From: Clostridiaceae bacterium JG1575
GTDB taxonomy: Bacteria > Bacillota > Clostridia > Clostridiales > Clostridiaceae
DNA length: 64,000 nt
NCBI GenBank assembly: GCA_002838815.1
Contig: LQGW01000052.1
Coordinates: 186,001 to 250,000 of the forward strand
Direction of reading: 5' to 3'
Positions 1 through 49,341 of the stretch are shown in pieces. Numbering within the stretch: position 1 is the stretch's first letter; each line of letters opens with the position of its first letter. The notes under the pieces are model-generated. The model made no database searches. It was not told where the DNA came from and worked only from the letters and a program-made list of their open reading frames with translations. A program made the translations under genes and the position numbers.

Positions 1-382
1 GGTCTCTTAGAAAAAAGAGCATGGTGATGCAGTAGACGAACCCGCCGGAGAAGAGGCCGATGACCTTCATTGTTTCCTTTTTTTGCATGAAATTGGTTAA
101 GATGCGCGGCGTATAATTGTTGAGGTAAATGCCCAGCACCGTCATGATGGTGGAAAAGCCAAAAGTGGTGATGGTCAAGAGCGCCCCGGCTAGGGTGGAG
201 AGGATGTTTTTGGAGAGCCGAAGGGTGGCCGTGAAGATTTCGGGAATGTAGTCGAAGCCTGGAAGAATCCGATAATCAATCAACAAGGTCGCAAGGGCCA
301 AAAGAATGGAAAAAAGGGCGTATTGGATGAGTTTGAGCCAGGGGATGTTTTCCCGAACCGTCAATAAGAGTCGCTGCCACAA
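1..382 (-). CDS. DUF2254 family membrane protein (N-terminal part, cut by window start)
   Basis: The minus strand is open from a TTG at 382 to the window edge, giving about 127 residues. A GGGAGG site lies 8 bases before the TTG. The protein has a hydrophobic segment near residues 12-32, then a stretch reading LSTLAGALLTITTFGFST and a TPRIL motif, then a further membrane segment starting GGFVYC. This order (two membrane segments, a conserved LST-G-T core, an SPRLL-like motif and a GTFVYC-like segment) is what is known of DUF2254 membrane proteins, whose function is unknown. The carboxy-terminal part lies outside the window. The TTG start is an inference from the ribosome site; no ATG fits as well. 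Confidence 0.7.
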   Translation of the reverse strand, partial: MWQRLLLTVRENIPWLKLIQYALFSILLALATLLIDYRILPGFDYIPEIFTATLRLSKNILSTLAGALLTITTFGFSTIMTVLGIYLNNYTPRILTNFMQKKETMKVIGLFSGGFVYCITMLFFLRD

Positions 383-524
383 AATAAAAACCTCCCTTGA
401 GTCTTGGGATTCGGAGCGATAAAAATGCGCCTTCTTTTATTTATGCTACAAAAGAACCGCAAAGATTGTCAATGCAGGGCCGTCTTGAGAAAAGACCCCT
501 GGCTCGGGCCAGCCCGGAGTTTTT

Positions 525-32018: not shown

Positions 32019-34688
32019 TTAAGAGACCTCCTTTTCGATGGATACGGTGCAGACTTTCAACTCCGGTATTTTAGCGATGGCATCCAACGCGGTGTTGGTG
32101 AGCATATTCGCGCCCTGAGCAAAATGAAACGGCATGAATAGCACGTCGTCCTCCAAAATGTCGGTGATGCGGACCGCAGCGGTGGTTTCCCCTCGTCGCG
32201 AGCGAAGACGCAGCCGATCGCCATTTTTAAGGTTGTAGCGAGACGCCGTTTCGCAAGAAACTTCCACATAAGCGTCCCCAGTGAGTTCGTTAAGCGCTGG
32301 CGTTTTCCCCGTCATGCTCATGGTGTGGTACTGATACAGCACCCGACCGGTGGTCAAGACGTAGGGATAGGCAGCATCCGGCACTTCCATGGGCGGCGCG
32401 TAGTCCACGGGAACAAACAACCCCCGTCCCCTTGCGATCCTCGTGCCGTGTAAAAAAGAGGTTCCCGGATGATCCTTCTTTGGGCAAGGCCACTGCAGTC
32501 CCACCGATTCAATGCGCTCATAGCTTACCCCGCGATAGGAGGGCGTCACTTGGGCAATTTCTTCAAATACACTTTTGGCATCGGGATACTCTTTGGGCAT
32601 GCCTAGACGTTGACAGATGTTCAAAAAGACCTGCCAATCCGGACGCGATTCGCCCCGAGGGCTCACCGCTCGACGAATCCGTTGAATCCGTCGTTCCGTG
32701 TTCGTGAAGGTGCCGTCCTTCTCAGCAAAGGAAGCCGCCGGCAAGACCACGTCGGCGTATTCCGCCGTTTCCGTCAAAAATAAATCGCTGACCACCAAGA
32801 ATTCACAATGATCCAAGGCGTGAAGCACGTGGTTGGTGTCGGGGTCTGAGACGGCGGGGTTTTCACCAAAGACCCAAAGCATACGCACTTGATCCTCGGT
32901 GATGGCGTGGAGCACCTCAGAGAGGGTCAGCCCCACTTTCCCCGAGAGCGGCCGCTCCCAAGCTTTTTCAAAGAACTCTCGGATCTCTGGCTTGAGGACC
33001 TTTTGGTAGCCCGGAAAATCGGCCGGCAGGCAACCCATGTCGCAAGCTCCCTGTACGTTGTTTTGCCCGCGCAAGGGGTTGATGCCCGCATGGGCTTTGC
33101 CGATGTTGCCCGTGAGTAGGGCCAGATTGGACAGCGCCATGACGCCATGTGTGCCCGTGCTGTGCTGAGTGATGCCCATGGCGTAATAGATGCCGGCGCA
33201 ATCTGCCTCGGCGTAAAGATGAGCCGCTGCCTCAATTTCTTCGGCACGAACGCCCACCACGGACGCCATGCGTTCGGGGGGATAGTCCTTCAGGAATTCA
33301 GCCAATTCTTCAAAATCCTCGGTTTGCGCTTTGATGAAGGCTTGATCCGTGAGCCCATCGCGAACGATGACATGGCACATGGCGTTGATGAGGGCGATAT
33401 TGCTGCCGGGCTTGATCTGTAGGTATCGATCCGCCCGCTGGGCCATTTCGATGCGCCTTGGGTCGGCCACGAGGATCTTCGCTCCGTTTCGCTGGGCCCG
33501 TTTCATCAGCGTCGCGATGACGGGATGATTTTCTGTCGTGTTGGTTCCGATTAAAAACAAGGCATCATTGAATTCGGTGTCGCCAATGGCATTGGTCATG
33601 GCGCCCGAACCTAAGGTTGTTGCAAGACCTGCAACCGTGGAACTGTGTCAGAGCCGGGCGCAGTGGTCGACATTGTTGGTGCCGATTCCTGCGCGCAACA
33701 TTTTCTGAAACATGTAGTTGTCTTCGTTGGAGCTTCTTGCGGAAGAAAATCCAGCGATGGCGTCTGGACCGCTTTCTTTGCGAATGGTTGTTATCTTCTC
33801 TGTGATGAGGGTCAGGGCCTCCTCCCAAGAAGCTTCCACCAATTGTCCCTCTCGGCGGATCAAGGGTTTTTTCAGGCGGTGGTTGTGGTTGATGAAATGG
33901 TAGGCAAAGCGTCCTTTGACACACAACAAACCGTCGTTGGGCACGGTGCCAAAGGCAGGGCGTACCCCCACCACTTGATCTTCATGGGTCAAAAGATCCA
34001 ATTGGCATCCTACCCCGCAAAAGCCGCAGGTCGTTCTGGTTTTTTCCAGCGCCCAGATGCGGGCCTTTTGGTGCTTTTCCGTCAACGCCCCTGTGGGACA
34101 AACGGCGACGCAGTTGCCACAAGAAACGCATGGAGAATCGATCAGAGCCTCTCCCCCAGCGGCGGCGACCTTCACGCCAAAACCACGGTCCTTCCAACCG
34201 ATGGCATCGGAGCATTGCAACTCCTGACAGACCCGCACGCACTTGCCGCAGAGAATGCACTTATCCGGATCAAAATCATAAAACTTATTGGAGGTGTCTT
34301 TGGGGGCATGGCGCCGAGCCCCTTGGCGATAACTGCCCATGGGCACATCGTATTCGTAGCAATAGTCTTGCAAACGACAACGCCCCGAGGCGCTGCAGGT
34401 TAAGCAATCGTTGGGATGATTTGAAAAGAGCAGATCCAAAACATTGCGCCGCGCATTGCGAACTCTTTGAGTATTGGTGGCCACCACCATCCCTTCTCGC
34501 ACCGGCACGGTGCAGGCTGTATCCAATCGGCCCCCCACCTCCACAAGGCAGAGACGGCAGGAGCCTGAAGGACGAAGACGCTCATCGTGGCAAAGAGTGG
34601 GAATGGGAATCCCTGAGCGTTGGCATATGGAAAGAATCGTCTCTTTGGCCTCGGCTTCCACAGGCTGCCCATTAATGGTTAGCTTCAT
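32019..34688 (-). CDS. fdhF: Selenocysteine-containing NAD-linked formate dehydrogenase catalytic subunit
   Basis: This 889-residue protein oxidises formate or reduces CO2 at a molybdenum or tungsten bis-pterin centre. The amino-terminal part holds a 2Fe-2S domain, a His/Cys 4Fe-4S site, a ferredoxin-like pair (CILCGKCVRVC and CVSCGNCVAVC), and the Mo-family 4Fe-4S motif CGFCGVGC. The UGA at 33650-33648 falls in DHCARL-U-HSSTVAG, exactly where formate dehydrogenases carry selenocysteine (residue 347), and the frame continues to the normal end. Read as a stop, it would give two halves of 346 and 526 residues. A SECIS-like hairpin follows the codon. It is preceded by nuoE/nuoF-like genes. Confidence 0.95.
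33613..33650 (-). promoter_or_regulatory. UGA selenocysteine codon and SECIS element
   Basis: On the minus strand, UGA (33650-33648) is followed 12 bases later by GUUGCA-GGUCU-UGCAAC (33635-33619). This is a six-base perfect stem with a GGUCU loop. From memory the bases CGGUUGCAGGUCU match the E. coli fdhF SECIS, at the same distance from the UGA. Confidence 0.92.
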
Positions 34689-43839: not shown

Positions 43840-45195
43840 CTAATCCGTTGGGAGCACCCAAACATGTGCGGGGTTTAGATGATAACAATTGAGGCGCCGC
43901 CCGCGAATAAAACCAGCTAAGGTCAGGTCCACTCGCCGGGCCAGTTCAATGGAGGAGCGTGAAGGCGCGGAGCGCGATAAAAGACAAGGGACCTCGGTTC
44001 GGGCGACTTTTTGCGTCATCTCCAGCGCCATTCGGCCCGAGAGGAGAATGGCGCATTGGGAAAGATCTAGGCGCTGGCGCAGGGCGGCCCCGATGAGCTT
44101 ATCCAACGCATTGTGACGTCCGATGTCCTCGCGGACCAAAAGGAGCTCCCCGTAGGCCAAGAGAGCGCACGAATGTGCGGCACCGCTTCGTACAAAAAGC
44201 TCGGAGCGGTGTTCAAACGCCTGCACGGCCTGAAAAATTTCCTCAAGGCCCAGCCGAAGCGGCCGCCGAGGCCGAAGGGCCCGAGCTTCATCCAGAGGCT
44301 GATCCCTTCGCAAGGTCCAGTCCATCGTTGGACAATGCACCCTCACCCGCCACGCCCTTGGCCCCTCTTTGGGCTCCTCCTGCAACAGAAGTTGTGGCAA
44401 GGGGTCCCCAGGTTGCAGCACCCCTTGGGTGAAGAGGTGCCCGAGGACGAGATCCCCAAGGTCAGTAGGCGTGGCCCACAAGGTGGTCCAGGGCGTCTGC
44501 TCTAAGAAGATGGCGATGGGCTCCTCTTGCATGACTTCATCCGTGAGGGATTGAAAGCCGCTCCCCTCAAAGCGAGTGATCATCACTGGAGCGAGCCCTT
44601 CGGGCAAGTGCTTGGGATGCTGCGCCAAATCCTTCGGGGTATTGAGGTTTGCAAAGAGCTCGCCCCTGGCGTAAGAGAGTTGCAAGAATCCTGCCCTTTG
44701 GATTAGGCGCGTCAAGGACCCCTCGCCTCGCGTCAACGATTCCTGAACCAAAGGCAATAGGGAGCGGGCATAAAACGCAAAGAAGGGCTGTAAGGCCTCG
44801 GGAACCGCTGTTTTAAGGACCAGTCCGTCTTCTTGGGTCAAGTGGTCCACTTGCATCTTGAGGCGGATCAGGAGGTCTTCGTCCCAGTTTGGCATATCGC
44901 AAGCCAAAAAAAAGACATACTCCGACTGAGCCGCTAAAAGGCCAGCGTGCAAGCCCACCAGGGGACCGCGCCCCGGCCATTGATCCGCTACATAATGAAC
45001 CTTCTTGTAGGCGCTCAGCCCCTTGGGGGGCAACGGATCGTGCCCCACCAAAAGGATGCGTTCAAAAACGGCGCTCAACCGCTGGATCTGGAGGTGCAAA
45101 AGGGAGCGACCGTCCAGGGTGAGCGTGGATTTGTCGAAGCCCATGCGGCGGCTTTCGCCACCGATTAAGAGGATGGCGTCCCCCGTCTTACTCAT
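43840..45195 (-). CDS. MobA-FdhD fusion: molybdopterin guanylyltransferase plus sulfur carrier
   Basis: The 451-residue protein joins MobA (1-195; GGESRRMGFDKSTL, DMPNWDED, NLNTPKDL), which makes the guanine dinucleotide cofactor, to FdhD (about 205-451; REDIGRHNALDKLIG, LSGRMALEM, GFIRGRRLNCYH). FdhD transfers sulfur to formate dehydrogenase cofactor in E. coli. The SSCGxCG-type cysteine pair of FdhD is absent: the aligned stretch reads EARALRPRRPLRLGLEE. The gene overlaps mogA by eight bases and precedes moeA. Confidence 0.88.
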   Translation of the reverse strand: MSKTGDAILLIGGESRRMGFDKSTLTLDGRSLLHLQIQRLSAVFERILLVGHDPLPPKGLSAYKKVHYVADQWPGRGPLVGLHAGLLAAQSEYVFFLACDMPNWDEDLLIRLKMQVDHLTQEDGLVLKTAVPEALQPFFAFYARSLLPLVQESLTRGEGSLTRLIQRAGFLQLSYARGELFANLNTPKDLAQHPKHLPEGLAPVMITRFEGSGFQSLTDEVMQEEPIAIFLEQTPWTTLWATPTDLGDLVLGHLFTQGVLQPGDPLPQLLLQEEPKEGPRAWRVRVHCPTMDWTLRRDQPLDEARALRPRRPLRLGLEEIFQAVQAFEHRSELFVRSGAAHSCALLAYGELLLVREDIGRHNALDKLIGAALRQRLDLSQCAILLSGRMALEMTQKVARTEVPCLLSRSAPSRSSIELARRVDLTLAGFIRGRRLNCYHLNPAHVWVLPTD

Positions 45196-45715
45196 GCTTA
45201 TATCCCGGGACTTCTTTCGTTAACTCCGGGGCCGCGCACTCCACAGCTTCCCCCCACAAGATGTCCAAGCCATGGGCCAAGGGTTCAATGACGGCCTCAA
45301 GGTTTTCTCGGCAAGCTTTAGGGGAGCCGGGTAAGTTGATGATGAGGCTACGGCCGCGAAGTCCGGCAATTCCTCGGGAGAGCATGGCCCGAGGGGTGAC
45401 TTCGAGACTCCTAGCGCGCATCACTTCGGCGATGCCCGGAACCCGACGATCCAAAAGCTCCGCCGTAGCCTCCGGAGTGATGTCTCGCAAAGAAAATCCG
45501 GTGCCGCCCGTGGTCAGCACCAAGGGCAGATGGGCCTCGTCGCAAAAGTCACGAAGGGCTTGTTGGATCTCTTTTTTTTCATCGGGGACGATGCGGTAGG
45601 CGGCGCTTTGATACCCATGAGCCCGTAATACTTCTTCAATGACGTCCTTGGAGCGGTCCAGACGCTCGCCCCGAGCGCCTTTATCGCTCACCGTGATGAT
45701 GCCGACTAAATACAT
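45188..45715 (-). CDS. mogA: Molybdopterin adenylyltransferase (MogA/MoaB type)
   Basis: MogA adenylylates molybdopterin before metal insertion. The protein has 175 residues from the ATG at 45715, with ITVSDKGARGERLD, TTGGTGFSLRDITPEAT and INLPGSPKAC. The start is chosen because AAAGGAG precedes it; an upstream ATG-like start at 45730 lacks that support. It lies 22 bases after the TIR-propeller gene and overlaps mobA-fdhD by eight bases. Confidence 0.92.
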   Translation of the reverse strand: MYLVGIITVSDKGARGERLDRSKDVIEEVLRAHGYQSAAYRIVPDEKKEIQQALRDFCDEAHLPLVLTTGGTGFSLRDITPEATAELLDRRVPGIAEVMRARSLEVTPRAMLSRGIAGLRGRSLIINLPGSPKACRENLEAVIEPLAHGLDILWGEAVECAAPELTKEVPGYKHE

Positions 45716-45737
45716 GATTCTCCTTTCCAAGGGCCTC

Positions 45738-48700
45738 TTAAGGCCGCTCTAAGCCATAGCGCATGCGCTCTTGGTCGGTGAGCTCACGATCCCCTAAAAG
45801 ATCCTTGACGCGCTGGGGCGCAACCTCTTTGCGCTCTAGACTGTAATATTGCAACTGAACAAATTTTCGGGCGATTTCTCGTCCTTCTCCCGCTCCTTGA
45901 GTGGTCTCCCGGTGGATGGTGTCCCATATAACGCCCTTGCCGTCCGGGGTCAAAAAGCCCCGCCCTTGGTTGAAGCTGACGTCCATGAGCAGCCGTTTGA
46001 GCAAAAGCCCCGAGCGTAAGTCAAAAAGGGCGCCTTCGGAGCGGCTGCCCGAATTGACGATGGTCAATAGGACGCCGGCGTCGGGGTTGATGTCGTAGAG
46101 ATTGCCTTGGAAGACGCCCATCTGATTGCGCGCTTCATCCAAGGGGGTGGTGCGTTCTTTCTGGGTCGTCAGGGAATAGCAGAACAGATCGTTGGCACGT
46201 ATGCCGTAGAGCAGATCCTCTTTTTCAGCGCTCGAAAGGGCCAAAACCCGCCCCACTCCTTCGTAAAGAACGGCGCCCGTTTCATAATCCAAAAGCTGTC
46301 CAGACCCTTCATAGGGGAAATTAACCAACAGCTTTTTGCCGTCTTTAGAGAAGCGAAGATCCTCTGGGAACCCTTCAAGAATGGGGAAGCGCCGCAGCTC
46401 TTGGAAGGTTTTGGTGGAGTAGACGTACGCTTGACCCAGGGAACTTAGGAATAAGACCTCCTCCTTCAAGGGGTGAAACACCGGCGTGACTTTCTTAAAA
46501 TCTACGTTGAAAGATGCGACCACTCGCCCGCTCTTTGTGTCGTAAAACACATTTTGCGATTCATTTTTTCCCGAGGCGCTGGTCCGTTGCTGGTTGGGCG
46601 CGAGAATCAGCGCGCCATCGGCGCTGAGGTAGAGATTCCTATAAAAGAAGGATTCGGACACGTTCAGACCGGCCATGGGTGGGATCTTACGAATCACCGC
46701 TCGCGTCGCGGTCTTTGCGAGGACATAGGCGCCATCTTGGTAGGCCAAAAACAGCGACCCATCGGGAGAGGTTCGGATGAGGTTCATGGGGTAGCGCTTT
46801 TTGCGCGAGGGGTTTTTCAGGTTGTAGATGGCGATGAACTGACCTTCGTTGGAGAAGCCCGTCAACCAATGATCGTCCTTGGTCAGCATCAGGCGGCCGT
46901 ACTTAAACGACTCCGGATCAAGGTCCAAAGAGACCAGGACGCCCTTTTCCAGCCAGGCCACATTGCCCTTGCTGTCCGATAAGAGAACGCGAGACCCCTC
47001 TTGATTGACCACCATGTGGTCCGTGGATCGATCCCCCGAGAGAGTACTGATGCTAAAAGAATTGGTTTGCAACAACGCCCCGGTTTGAGGGTCTAAGGTT
47101 TCAATGCGTCCCGCGGGTCGGGTAATGAGTTTTTTGCCGTCCCCCGATTCCATAAGGTAGGCGCCTTTGACAAAGTAGCTGGAATATTCGGCGGCTTTTC
47201 CCTTCTCGGCGATGCGCCGTCCCCCCAGCGAAAAGACCAAGGACTGGTCCTTCACACGGACTTTTTTGAGGGTTTGACCGTTCATCAGGTAGACGGCCTC
47301 CCCATCCCGGCTAAAGCGCCCCTCCAAGGACAAGGCAGGATCCTTCAGCGTCTTTTGAGGATCCTTGGGATCCACGCGCAGCAAGGGGTCTGCGGGGAAT
47401 GAAGCGATTTTTTTGCCGTCTTGTACGGAGAAAATTTCCAAAAGCGAGGTATCGGCGTACTCCAGCATCAAAAGACCGCGCCCGGCATGAAATTCTGCAT
47501 TGCGGATGCCACGGCTGGCCAAGGGCACGGTGAGCTTTGGGGTCCAGTCGGCGCTGTTTAACACCATAAGGGTAAAAGACGTGCTGTTTTTGCTCAGCAC
47601 CACTGCCAGGGAGGCCCCATCTTCGGTGAAGCGGGTCATGACGGGACGCTGTTCGAGCTTTTTGCGTCGGATCGCCTGACGCTTTTGCACATCCCAAAGC
47701 GCCAATTCGTTGTCGGCGGAGGTGGAAATTAGGGTTTTACCATCGGGAGCAAAGACCAGGTTCATCACAGCACGATCGTGCGCCGGGGCGGTCCCCAAGC
47801 GTTTGCCTGTGGCGATGTCCAAAAATGCCAGGTGGTTTTCCTGATATTTCGTGACCAACAGCCGGCTGTCGGGAGAGGTATCGAGGATGATGTTGTCGGA
47901 GGCGAGGTTGATCTTCGTCATGAGCGCCACCTCATCCCCATCGGCCAAGTCATTCAAAAGAGCCTGCTGCTTGGTTTTCAGCTCGCTATAGGCCTTCATG
48001 TCCAAAGTGACCTTCTCCATGGCTTCTTTGGCTAAAAGACTGGTGAGAATCCGATCCCCGGTGTTTTGGACTCGGGCGGCCTCTTGCAACGTCAGGCGGG
48101 CCTGGCCTTCCTTGGCCAAGCGCTCTTGTTCCACCGCACGGCTCCACTGCAGGTACATAAAAAGACCGAAAAAGAGCAAAAGAACCGCAGAAAAGGCCGA
48201 AACGGTCAAGATTCGGCGTTGGCGGCGCTCCTTGTCGCGCTGTTTCAAGTCCCCAAAGGAAACCCCTAGGAGTCCGGCCATGATCCGGTATTTTTCCTGA
48301 GCCAAGAGCGCGGCGCTCTGGGCCGTCAGCTCCTTAACCCGGCGAGGATCCGAAACCTCCAAGGCCGCATAGCCCGGGAAGGCCGCATCTTTCACGGCGG
48401 CGGGCCGCATCTCGGCCGCCAGCACTTCTTTGGGTTCATAGGTAATGGAGCCGTCTTCTTGAATCTTTTTTTCTTTAAGCTCCAAGAGCTGGTGGGGGAA
48501 GGCGTCTTTAGGCTCCCCTTCCAGCAGGATGGGAATGATGTGATCGTCTCCGTGGAAGCGGCGGAACAAATCAATCTCGCGCAGGCACCAAGGGGATTCC
48601 TTGAATCGGCGTGAGCAGATGACGATGAGGGTTCTTGAGGCGCGTAGGGCTTCCTCCAAAGCGCCTCCAAGGCCGGCAGCCCCCAGCTCCTCCCGGTCGC

Positions 48701-49076
48701 GAAAGACTCGGAACGGCTTGGCATTGCCTTCTCGCTGGAATTCCTTGGGCAACGGAAAGGTTTCGATCATTTCATGAATTTTACGGGCCACCGTGGCATC
48801 AGGCTCCAAATGACGATAGCTGATGAAGGCCTCATATTTGTACGATTCTTTTTCTCGTCCCTGGGCCGCCTGCGAGATGGTCTGAGCCGTGGTATTGTCT
48901 GAAGATAGGTTCGCCCCCTCTTCACTCGGATCTTTTTCTTTTGGCGCCTTTGTCTTTTGAGGGGGGCATTCGTCTTTTAACTGCTGCGAGTCATTCAAAG
49001 CCTCTTTCTCACCGGGGCGGGAAGGATGGGGATCCTTGGGGTCCCCGTAGGAGTCCGTGGGGTCATAATTGCTCAT
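45738..49076 (-). CDS. TIR domain - transmembrane - beta-propeller protein
   Basis: The 1112-residue protein has a low-complexity acidic/proline-rich lead (1-75), a TIR domain (about 81-210) with AFISYRH at its start and the WCxxE motif SPWCLREI (W163-E167), a membrane segment at about 289-310 with basic residues before it, and a long carboxy-terminal region of WD40/propeller-like repeats (VMNLVFAPDGKTLISTSADNELALWD and others). TIR domains with this glutamate can cleave NAD+ or make signalling molecules, and several act in phage defence. No phage-defence partner gene is adjacent. The promoter has TATAAT near 49105-49110. Function unknown. Confidence 0.85.
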   Translation of the reverse strand: MSNYDPTDSYGDPKDPHPSRPGEKEALNDSQQLKDECPPQKTKAPKEKDPSEEGANLSSDNTTAQTISQAAQGREKESYKYEAFISYRHLEPDATVARKIHEMIETFPLPKEFQREGNAKPFRVFRDREELGAAGLGGALEEALRASRTLIVICSRRFKESPWCLREIDLFRRFHGDDHIIPILLEGEPKDAFPHQLLELKEKKIQEDGSITYEPKEVLAAEMRPAAVKDAAFPGYAALEVSDPRRVKELTAQSAALLAQEKYRIMAGLLGVSFGDLKQRDKERRQRRILTVSAFSAVLLLFFGLFMYLQWSRAVEQERLAKEGQARLTLQEAARVQNTGDRILTSLLAKEAMEKVTLDMKAYSELKTKQQALLNDLADGDEVALMTKINLASDNIILDTSPDSRLLVTKYQENHLAFLDIATGKRLGTAPAHDRAVMNLVFAPDGKTLISTSADNELALWDVQKRQAIRRKKLEQRPVMTRFTEDGASLAVVLSKNSTSFTLMVLNSADWTPKLTVPLASRGIRNAEFHAGRGLLMLEYADTSLLEIFSVQDGKKIASFPADPLLRVDPKDPQKTLKDPALSLEGRFSRDGEAVYLMNGQTLKKVRVKDQSLVFSLGGRRIAEKGKAAEYSSYFVKGAYLMESGDGKKLITRPAGRIETLDPQTGALLQTNSFSISTLSGDRSTDHMVVNQEGSRVLLSDSKGNVAWLEKGVLVSLDLDPESFKYGRLMLTKDDHWLTGFSNEGQFIAIYNLKNPSRKKRYPMNLIRTSPDGSLFLAYQDGAYVLAKTATRAVIRKIPPMAGLNVSESFFYRNLYLSADGALILAPNQQRTSASGKNESQNVFYDTKSGRVVASFNVDFKKVTPVFHPLKEEVLFLSSLGQAYVYSTKTFQELRRFPILEGFPEDLRFSKDGKKLLVNFPYEGSGQLLDYETGAVLYEGVGRVLALSSAEKEDLLYGIRANDLFCYSLTTQKERTTPLDEARNQMGVFQGNLYDINPDAGVLLTIVNSGSRSEGALFDLRSGLLLKRLLMDVSFNQGRGFLTPDGKGVIWDTIHRETTQGAGEGREIARKFVQLQYYSLERKEVAPQRVKDLLGDRELTDQERMRYGLERP

Positions 49077-49341
49077 AATGAATTTCCTCCGTTTAGTCTC
49101 TTTTATTATAAAGGATTCCAGAGTGGAAAGTGGAAGGGATTCTCATTCTTGCCGTTTTCGCCGCACAGTCTTTTAAAAAACAGCCCAGTGTATCGGAAAT
49201 TCTGTATGTGCCTGAAGAGAATCTGTGGTTATGGTTAAAGCGTGTTCTCACAAGAGTGCTATAGTTAAGCTACGCGGCCCACCCTCATCGATGGGCCCTA
49301 TGCCGTGTCCCCACGTACTCTTTGAAGGAGCAGCTCATCCC

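What the first reader, a model, noticed from the sequence alone, without database searches (positions are those of the whole stretch)
45738..49076. TIR-transmembrane-propeller protein directly upstream of the cofactor operon
The 1112-residue protein keeps the catalytic-looking WCxxE motif of TIR domains, has a membrane segment and a large beta-propeller sensor-like region, and ends 22 bases from mogA. TIR enzymes often consume NAD+ on stimulation. An NAD-cleaving, membrane-tethered sensor near an NAD-linked formate dehydrogenase operon is a possible new signalling or defence device. The link could be chance.
Basis: partly seen in the sequence, partly recalled or inferred. Interest (0 to 1): 0.65.

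Follow-up and report, generated by a model that had tools for sequence, protein, structure and literature searches.

The report
TIR sensor paired with ion channel
The gene encodes a membrane-anchored immune-type enzyme whose close relatives sit next to a gene for a predicted ion channel carrying a ryanodine-receptor domain, which suggests that bacteria use an NAD-derived messenger to gate a channel, while its position beside cofactor genes looks accidental.

Summary
Observation confirmed: window 45738-49076 (-) encodes 1112 aa with a TIR domain (over Pfam's cut-off), one membrane helix and a tandem propeller, ending 22 bp before mogA. The proposed tie to the cofactor/formate dehydrogenase genes is not supported: two congeners have no ORF of 120 aa or more between MATE and mogA. 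The real association is another gene. In 15 of 15 relatives of its clade, from three phyla, the TIR gene lies beside a ~620-aa gene, in either order. That partner is predicted to be a two-helix pore with tandem RCK domains (closest folds GsuK, CASTOR/DMI1, Slo1) plus a C-terminal ryanodine-receptor (RyR) domain with the residues by which phage RyR proteins bind cyclic ADP-ribose (PMC13232231). The window gene falls in this clade (100/96), but the genome's copy of the partner lies on another contig. Best reading: half of a Thoeris-like TIR-to-RyR-channel signalling system, split in this genome. Enzymatic activity, ligand, gating and anti-phage role are inferred; no regular defence-island setting was seen.

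The parts
45738..49076 (-). TIR-TM-double propeller gene, 1112 aa
48351..48845 (-). TIR domain with following helices (about residues 78-242), predicted cytosolic
   Evidence: TIR_2/TIR Pfam matches lie at residues 118-203; model strands and helices from residue 81
48576..48590 (-). W163-C-L-R-E167 motif; E167 is the candidate NADase glutamate
   Evidence: invariant W163/E167 in 27 of 27; aligned with WCLME of L6
48144..48212 (-). membrane helix, about residues 289-311, inside one long predicted helix 274-338
   Evidence: hydropathy peak in 27 of 27 relatives, more K/R on the N side in 27 of 27 (L047 has a second weaker peak); model
45840..47927 (-). tandem beta-propeller region, residues 384-1079, predicted outside the cytoplasm
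   Evidence: model and Foldseek; WD40-type Pfam matches
45741..45824 (-). C-terminal helical tail, residues 1085-1112 (..GDRELTDQERMRYGLERP); the Fusobacterium relative ends ..GRQLTESELNSIGRRE
49105..49110 (-). TATAAT box upstream of the start; possible promoter of the TIR gene
   Evidence: sequence; not reported by the promoter scan, so weak
45716..45737 (-). 22-bp spacer between TIR stop and mogA ATG, no terminator-like site in it
45188..45715 (-). mogA-type gene, first gene of the cofactor cluster; a neighbour, not part of the system
   Evidence: synteny in congeners

Best explanation
The gene is the sensor/enzyme half of a two-gene TIR-to-channel signalling system. Proposed mechanism: the outer propeller senses an unknown cue; TIR domains on the inner face of the membrane assemble and cleave NAD+ to an ADP-ribose-type messenger; the messenger binds the RyR domain of the partner, an RCK-ring channel (presumably a tetramer), and gates its pore, so that ion flux stops growth or kills the cell (abortive-infection logic, as in Thoeris but with a channel as effector). 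Shown by computation: TIR with aligned Glu, membrane segment, propeller, gene pairing, RyR domain with conserved ligand residues, channel-like fold, lineage-specific position beside mogA. Inferred: enzymatic activity, nature of the messenger, gating, outer location of the propeller, physiological role, and that the unlinked partner in this genome is the working mate.
For: (1) Pairing: 15 of 15 loci of the clade (L002, L032-L045) carry the partner next to the TIR gene, twelve before it and three after it; of 14 gaps measured, 10 lie within -4 to +22 bp, the others are -35, -35, -119 and +162. The RyR profile scan found an RyR protein in 15 of 86 loci: 14 of the clade plus L003; L044's partner was displaced in that gene set and is known. 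(2) Clade: window + 15 partner-bearing rows, support 100/96; the other 71 rows lie outside. (3) The partner is uncommon yet present here: own genome E=4.9e-107; one full-length match in 57 relatives (G016); in 397 further genomes of the phylum none over the whole length, only two shorter relatives, G181 and G199, the latter missed by the profile and found with another query. (4) G016 and G181 have it beside a different kind of TIR protein. (5) RyR: the profile A6 hits 56 distinct PDB sequences, every one named ryanodine receptor or RyR-domain protein, best 2.4e-19 (many are near-copies of RyR1-3); the G181 partner scores 33.3 bits over Pfam's 27.4. H, W at +3 and H at +25, the spacings of RyDEP H75/W78/H100 (PMC13232231, sections 4 and 5 read), occur in 15 of 17 partners checked, the window genome's own included; an Asp follows. 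(6) Channel: M1-short helix-M2-RCK-RCK model, pLDDT 87.6; GsuK 1.1e-5; MtDMI1 Z 16.3 (rmsd 5.3, 339 aligned), CASTOR Z 15.8 (5.2, 286), GsuK Z 14.4 (10.2, 350). (7) TIR and partner distances correlate, Mantel r 0.93, n 14, 0 of 5000 permutations.
Against: The genome's own partner is unlinked (contigs C28 and C33), 20-25% identical to the 13 others compared, on a long branch outside them, and its distances track those of the TIR protein poorly (row r 0.32), so it may not be the true mate. G199 has an RyR/RCK protein without a TIR neighbour. 70 of the 71 other TIR-TM rows show no RyR protein in the ORFs held, so the TIR-TM-propeller plan also works without one. The own partner gave no Pfam match at E<=0.05. 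No partner of 17 has a TVGYG-like filter, so conduction is not assured. The fold searches list no RyR structure; that domain rests on sequence. No regular defence neighbourhood. Mantel r partly reflects shared ancestry. PMC13232231 concerns phage RyR proteins that degrade or sequester, not gate.
Confidence: 0.62

Rival explanations
1. A stand-alone TIR NADase: on sensing a stimulus it simply depletes NAD+; the RyR/RCK partner is a sink or regulator, or irrelevant in this genome where it is unlinked.
For: TIR Glu conserved; 71 of 86 relatives lack this partner next to them; the window copy is alone in its locus.
Against: The window gene belongs to the subclade in which all 15 others have the partner, and an uncommon partner homologue is present in the genome.
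Confidence: 0.18
2. A membrane signalling device for envelope or ion homeostasis rather than immunity: the same two proteins, but the cue is osmotic or envelope stress and the channel adjusts ion balance.
For: Outward propeller predicted; the neighbour families shown are mostly housekeeping; RCK channels normally serve ion homeostasis (recalled).
Against: Spread over three phyla and not found in either congener, as horizontally spread, dispensable systems are; TIR and RyR proteins both take part in phage-host nucleotide signalling (PMC13232231).
Confidence: 0.15
3. One reading: the TIR protein is functionally tied to the cofactor/formate dehydrogenase operon.
For: 22-bp spacing without terminator, so co-transcription is likely.
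Against: Both congeners lack it at the same spot; none of 1243 neighbour ORFs in 86 loci of relatives resembles the six cofactor proteins (flanks of at most 10 kb, many cut by contig ends).
Confidence: 0.03
4. TIR is a non-enzymatic assembly module that contacts the channel directly, without a diffusible messenger.
For: Tight gene coupling and correlated distances also fit a complex.
Against: Invariant E167 and conserved nucleotide-pocket residues of the RyR domain would be unexplained.
Confidence: 0.08

Closest known systems
Thoeris anti-phage systems (ThsB TIR + ThsA effector)
   Same: Two genes; a TIR enzyme makes an ADP-ribose-type signal that a separate effector protein senses (PMC13232231 abstract; PMC11204291 search listing only).
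   Different: Here TIR is membrane-anchored with a propeller; the effector is an RyR/RCK channel-like protein, not SIR2-SLOG or macro-domain ThsA; no PADLOC model matched the five partners scanned.
RCK-gated ion channels: GsuK, MthK, CASTOR/DMI1, Slo1
   Same: M1-short helix-M2 followed by tandem Rossmann/RCK domains.
   Different: Carries a C-terminal RyR domain; no TVGYG-like filter in 17 of 17; paired with a TIR gene.
RyR Repeat12 domain proteins (PF02026), including phage RyDEP and animal ryanodine receptors
   Same: Domain by sequence and ligand residues (PMC13232231).
   Different: Phage RyDEP proteins are hydrolases or sponges (PMC13232231); animal RyRs have another kind of pore (recalled). 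Here the domain is on a bacterial RCK channel-like protein.
Other TIR-TM-propeller proteins of Clostridia and Bacilli
   Same: Same TIR-TM part, and propeller-like length.
   Different: Sister branch of 67 rows, nearly all Bacillota, without this partner; in 22 loci a protein cluster whose one scanned member is DHH/DHHA1-type lies close by.

Membership tests
TIR domain, NADase type | TIR fold recognised over curated cut-off | tested here: met
   TIR_2 35.6 bits vs 28; TIR 32.1 vs 21.3
TIR domain, NADase type | Catalytic Glu in WxxxE position | tested here: met
   E167 aligned with WCLME of L6 (that this Glu is catalytic is recalled); invariant in 27 of 27
TIR domain, NADase type | NAD+ cleavage or cyclisation | not testable with these tools
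   needs an assay
Thoeris | ThsB-type TIR | tested here: inconclusive
   window protein: PF08937 ThsB_TIR 17.2 bits under its 21.2 cut-off, no PADLOC ThsB hit at E<=10; but the Fusobacterium relative reaches 32 bits for PF08937, and the TIR beside the G181 partner matches PADLOC ThsB at 1.2e-5
Thoeris | ThsA-type effector next to the TIR gene | tested here: not met
   neighbours are mogA and MATE; relatives have the RyR/RCK gene, without PADLOC match
Thoeris | 2'cADPR/3'cADPR or related signal | not testable with these tools
   needs an assay
RyR (PF02026) domain, partner | Domain recognised | tested here: met
   33.3 bits over 27.4 in the G181 partner; below the cut-off in 5 of 7 clade partners and no match in the other 2, none in the window genome's own copy, which aligns with the rest; all 56 PDB sequences hit by the profile are RyR
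RyR (PF02026) domain, partner | Ligand residues H, W, H, D of RyDEP | tested here: met
   H and W in 17 of 17, H at +25 in 15 of 17 (L045 ends early, L117 differs); Asp in at least 90% of the 11 rows of A6
RCK K+ channels (GsuK/MthK) | M1-P-M2 plus RCK fold | tested here: met
   (model of the Lachnoanaerobaculum copy, not of the window genome's)
RCK K+ channels (GsuK/MthK) | TVGYG selectivity filter | tested here: not met
   absent from 17 of 17 partners; the own copy reads PTVGPG in that stretch
Known PADLOC defence system | Match of system proteins | tested here: not met
   only weak PDC-S66 (3.3e-4) for the window protein, 5.5e-8 for the L033 relative; five partners none

The most novel reading that the evidence does not exclude
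A bacterial TIR enzyme makes a (cyclic) ADP-ribose messenger that opens an RCK-ring ion channel through an RyR domain: a prokaryotic counterpart of the cyclic-ADP-ribose/ryanodine-receptor axis, serving as a channel-effector branch of TIR immunity, and spread across Bacillota, Fusobacteriota and Actinomycetota.
Probability: 0.45. Interest if true: 0.9.

Novelty: new variant of a known kind. Interest (0 to 1): 0.72.

Why it matters
If true, it names the missing output of a class of membrane TIR proteins, adds an ion channel to the known effectors of TIR nucleotide signalling, and gives a small bacterial system in which the idea that cyclic ADP-ribose acts on RyR domains of channels can be tested directly. 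It also suggests a natural counterpart for phage RyR decoys: the host's own sensor.

Tried and rejected
Cofactor link: rejected by synteny and by the absence of cofactor genes near relatives. Phage or plasmid carriage: no match among phages; in viral contigs the pattern scans confirmed none; of 30 plasmid records matched, the 15 shown are a 2.1-Mb Fusobacterium record that looks like a chromosome plus weaker TIR or WD40 proteins, and the partner was found only in that Fusobacterium record. A pattern scan of genome contigs with the full protein confirmed no relative; the TIR-part alignment did (139 relatives, best 80 kept, so the family was not sampled in full). The 50 rows shown of 1999 for the full model hold no TIR chain, because propellers fill the list. 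Promoter and terminator scans gave about as many sites as shuffles. Rfam: nothing at gathering threshold in the window. The 2015 nucleotide-conflict-systems paper (doi 10.1093/nar/gkv1267), which by recall proposed RyR domains as nucleotide sensors in bacteria, is not held. Two other papers were looked into by word search only: PMC9503650, no passage, and PMC7159879, nine passages, none on RyR. The statement that I saw no TIR + RyR-channel pairing in print rests on the titles and abstract starts listed by ten searches of the open-access library, several of which listed only part of what they found.

Two script faults: one search used a concatenated query (repeated correctly); one search did not find two files (done again).
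Full report
Window 45738-49076 (-) is an intact 1112-codon ORF with ATG and GGAGG. Pfam finds TIR_2 and TIR over their cut-offs and WD40-type matches from residue 374 on, most of these below their own cut-offs. The stop is 22 bp from the mogA ATG at 45715. The gene has no second copy in its genome and is the only TIR_2 match there. The NAD-linked formate dehydrogenase genes lie at about 32.0-38.1 kb, beyond the cofactor genes.

The glutamate. A profile of three TIR-TM parts aligns E167 of W163-C-L-R-E167 with the Glu of WCLME in flax L6; that this residue is catalytic E135 of L6 is recalled. W163 and E167 are invariant in 27 of 27 relatives. Activity was not tested.

The cofactor link looks like an accident of position. 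In both congeners held, G002 and G001, the divergent MATE gene faces mogA and mobA-fdhD, with no ORF of 120 aa or more between MATE and mogA. Neither has a match to the TIR protein or to TIR_2; G001 is 87% complete. The gene entered the MATE-mogA spacer in this lineage, or was lost from both others. None of the 1243 ORFs around 86 relatives resembles the six cofactor proteins. With a 22-bp spacer and no terminator in it the cofactor genes are probably read from the TIR side, but that is inference.

The conserved neighbour is a channel-like protein. A pattern scan of 84,980 species' contigs with the TIR part confirmed 139 relatives, of which 80 were kept. Fourteen of these, L032-L045, and Fusobacterium L002 from the plasmid collection form one clade with the window gene. 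By BLAST eleven of them, L033-L043, match at 27-32% over 712-1083 columns, L045 at 27% over 975, and L032, L002 and L044 at 30-44% over the first 400-500. All 15 have the same kind of partner gene next to the TIR gene: first in twelve, second in L002, L044 and L045. Of 14 gaps measured, 10 are within -4 to +22 bp (ORFs start at the first possible start codon, so overlaps may be overstated). L032's partner is cut by the contig end, L038's is split in two ORFs, L042's TIR protein is broken in two (second piece 53% identical to the end of L041's), and L045's partner ends within the RyR domain. The lineages are fewer than 15: Lachnoanaerobaculum and its kin supply six.

The window gene belongs there. 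In a tree of 87 TIR-TM parts the window and the 15 form one set (100/96) and the 71 others lie outside; the tool warns of long branches, among them the window's.

The partner in this genome. A profile of ten partners finds E=4.9e-107 on contig C28 and the same protein on C33 (same surroundings, perhaps an assembly duplicate). The contig fits the organism: its cardiolipin-synthase-like gene is 72% identical to G002's, where no partner lies beside it. The only TIR_2 match of the genome is the window's, so no TIR lies beside the partner. Partners of this kind are uncommon. In 57 relatives one matched over the whole length, G016, and four more only in the RyR part. In 397 further genomes of the phylum none matched over the whole length and G181 did in part; G199 was missed there and found with the G181 protein, 2 of 398 genomes matching in that search. 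G181 and G016 each have a different TIR_2 protein directly next to the partner. G199 is a counterexample: an RyR/RCK protein without a TIR neighbour, although four TIR_2 matches lie elsewhere in it, three of them in long proteins whose first part resembles the TIR-TM part at 29-30% identity. The Butyrivibrio plasmid L003 has another RyR-domain protein (A6 profile 7.5e-9) about 320 bp from its TIR gene.

What the partner is. The model of the Lachnoanaerobaculum copy (pLDDT 87.6) shows helices 5-33, 39-54 and 68-104, two Rossmann domains and a helical end. Foldseek ranks GsuK first (1.1e-5), then the CASTOR gating ring and Slo1; the second aligner gives MtDMI1 Z 16.3 (rmsd 5.3, 339 aligned), CASTOR 15.8 (5.2, 286) and GsuK 14.4 (10.2, 350, over 5..450). 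No TVGYG-like filter is seen in 17 of 17 partners. The C-terminal part is an RyR domain by sequence: all 56 distinct PDB sequences hit by its profile are ryanodine receptors or RyR-domain proteins. A 2026 preprint (PMC13232231; [quoted passage not shown] The partners have H and W at +3 in 17 of 17 and H at +25 in 15 of 17, the window genome's own included, and a later Asp.

Mechanism proposed. K/R residues are more numerous before than after the membrane helix in 27 of 27, so TIR should be inside and the propeller outside. An outer cue would cluster TIR domains, NAD+ would be turned into an ADP-ribose-type messenger, and this would gate the RCK/RyR channel. Domain content, pairing and conserved residues are shown; every functional step is inferred.

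Results against. The own partner is 20-25% identical to the 13 others compared, sits on a long branch, and its distances track those of the TIR protein poorly (row r 0.32), although the whole set correlates (Mantel r 0.93, n = 14, 0 of 5000). Among 76 neighbour proteins of 11 of the 15 clade loci (84 from 12 loci had been listed; L002's eight left out) the 25 Pfam families shown of 82 are mostly housekeeping, with N6-methylase in two proteins; of 130 PADLOC models matched the 25 shown are type I restriction and MADS models with two or three members each. A methylase-type NPPF motif places one such gene in L040. So some loci hold restriction genes, but there is no regular defence island.

Known or new. 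It works like Thoeris but is not filed as Thoeris: the ThsA-type effector is missing, and the window protein does not reach ThsB models, although its Fusobacterium relative does reach Pfam's ThsB_TIR cut-off. Ten searches of the open-access library listed no report of such a pairing (listings only); the 2015 paper most likely to have foreseen parts of it is not held.

Noticed in passing
window 32019-34688 (-), TGA at codon 347: The formate dehydrogenase alpha gene is open over 889 codons if one in-frame TGA is read as selenocysteine (..CARLU-HSST..), so it is probably a selenoprotein.
   Followed up: partly
window 43840-45195 (-): MobA and FdhD domains are fused in one protein; fused in G002 too, adjacent but in two ORFs in G001.
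   Followed up: partly
22 loci, e.g. L048, L050, L052, L053, L055, L057, L064, L066: A protein cluster of about 505-535 aa, whose one scanned member (L052) is DHH/DHHA1-type, is a near neighbour of the other TIR-TM-propeller branch; possibly a second, different pairing.
   Followed up: no
L057, L095, L048: Two or three TIR-TM-propeller genes in tandem.
   Followed up: no
L047:6296-8986: A TIR-trypsin fusion protein directly before a TIR-TM-propeller gene.
   Followed up: no
L118 1-1761 (+): A protein that by eye looks like an ATPase with an RyR-like C-terminus; RyR-only matches occur in four genomes of the family.
   Followed up: no
G000 contigs C28 and C33: The two contigs share the partner gene and its surroundings (same ORFs, shifted by 121 bases); assembly duplicate or real repeat.
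   Followed up: no
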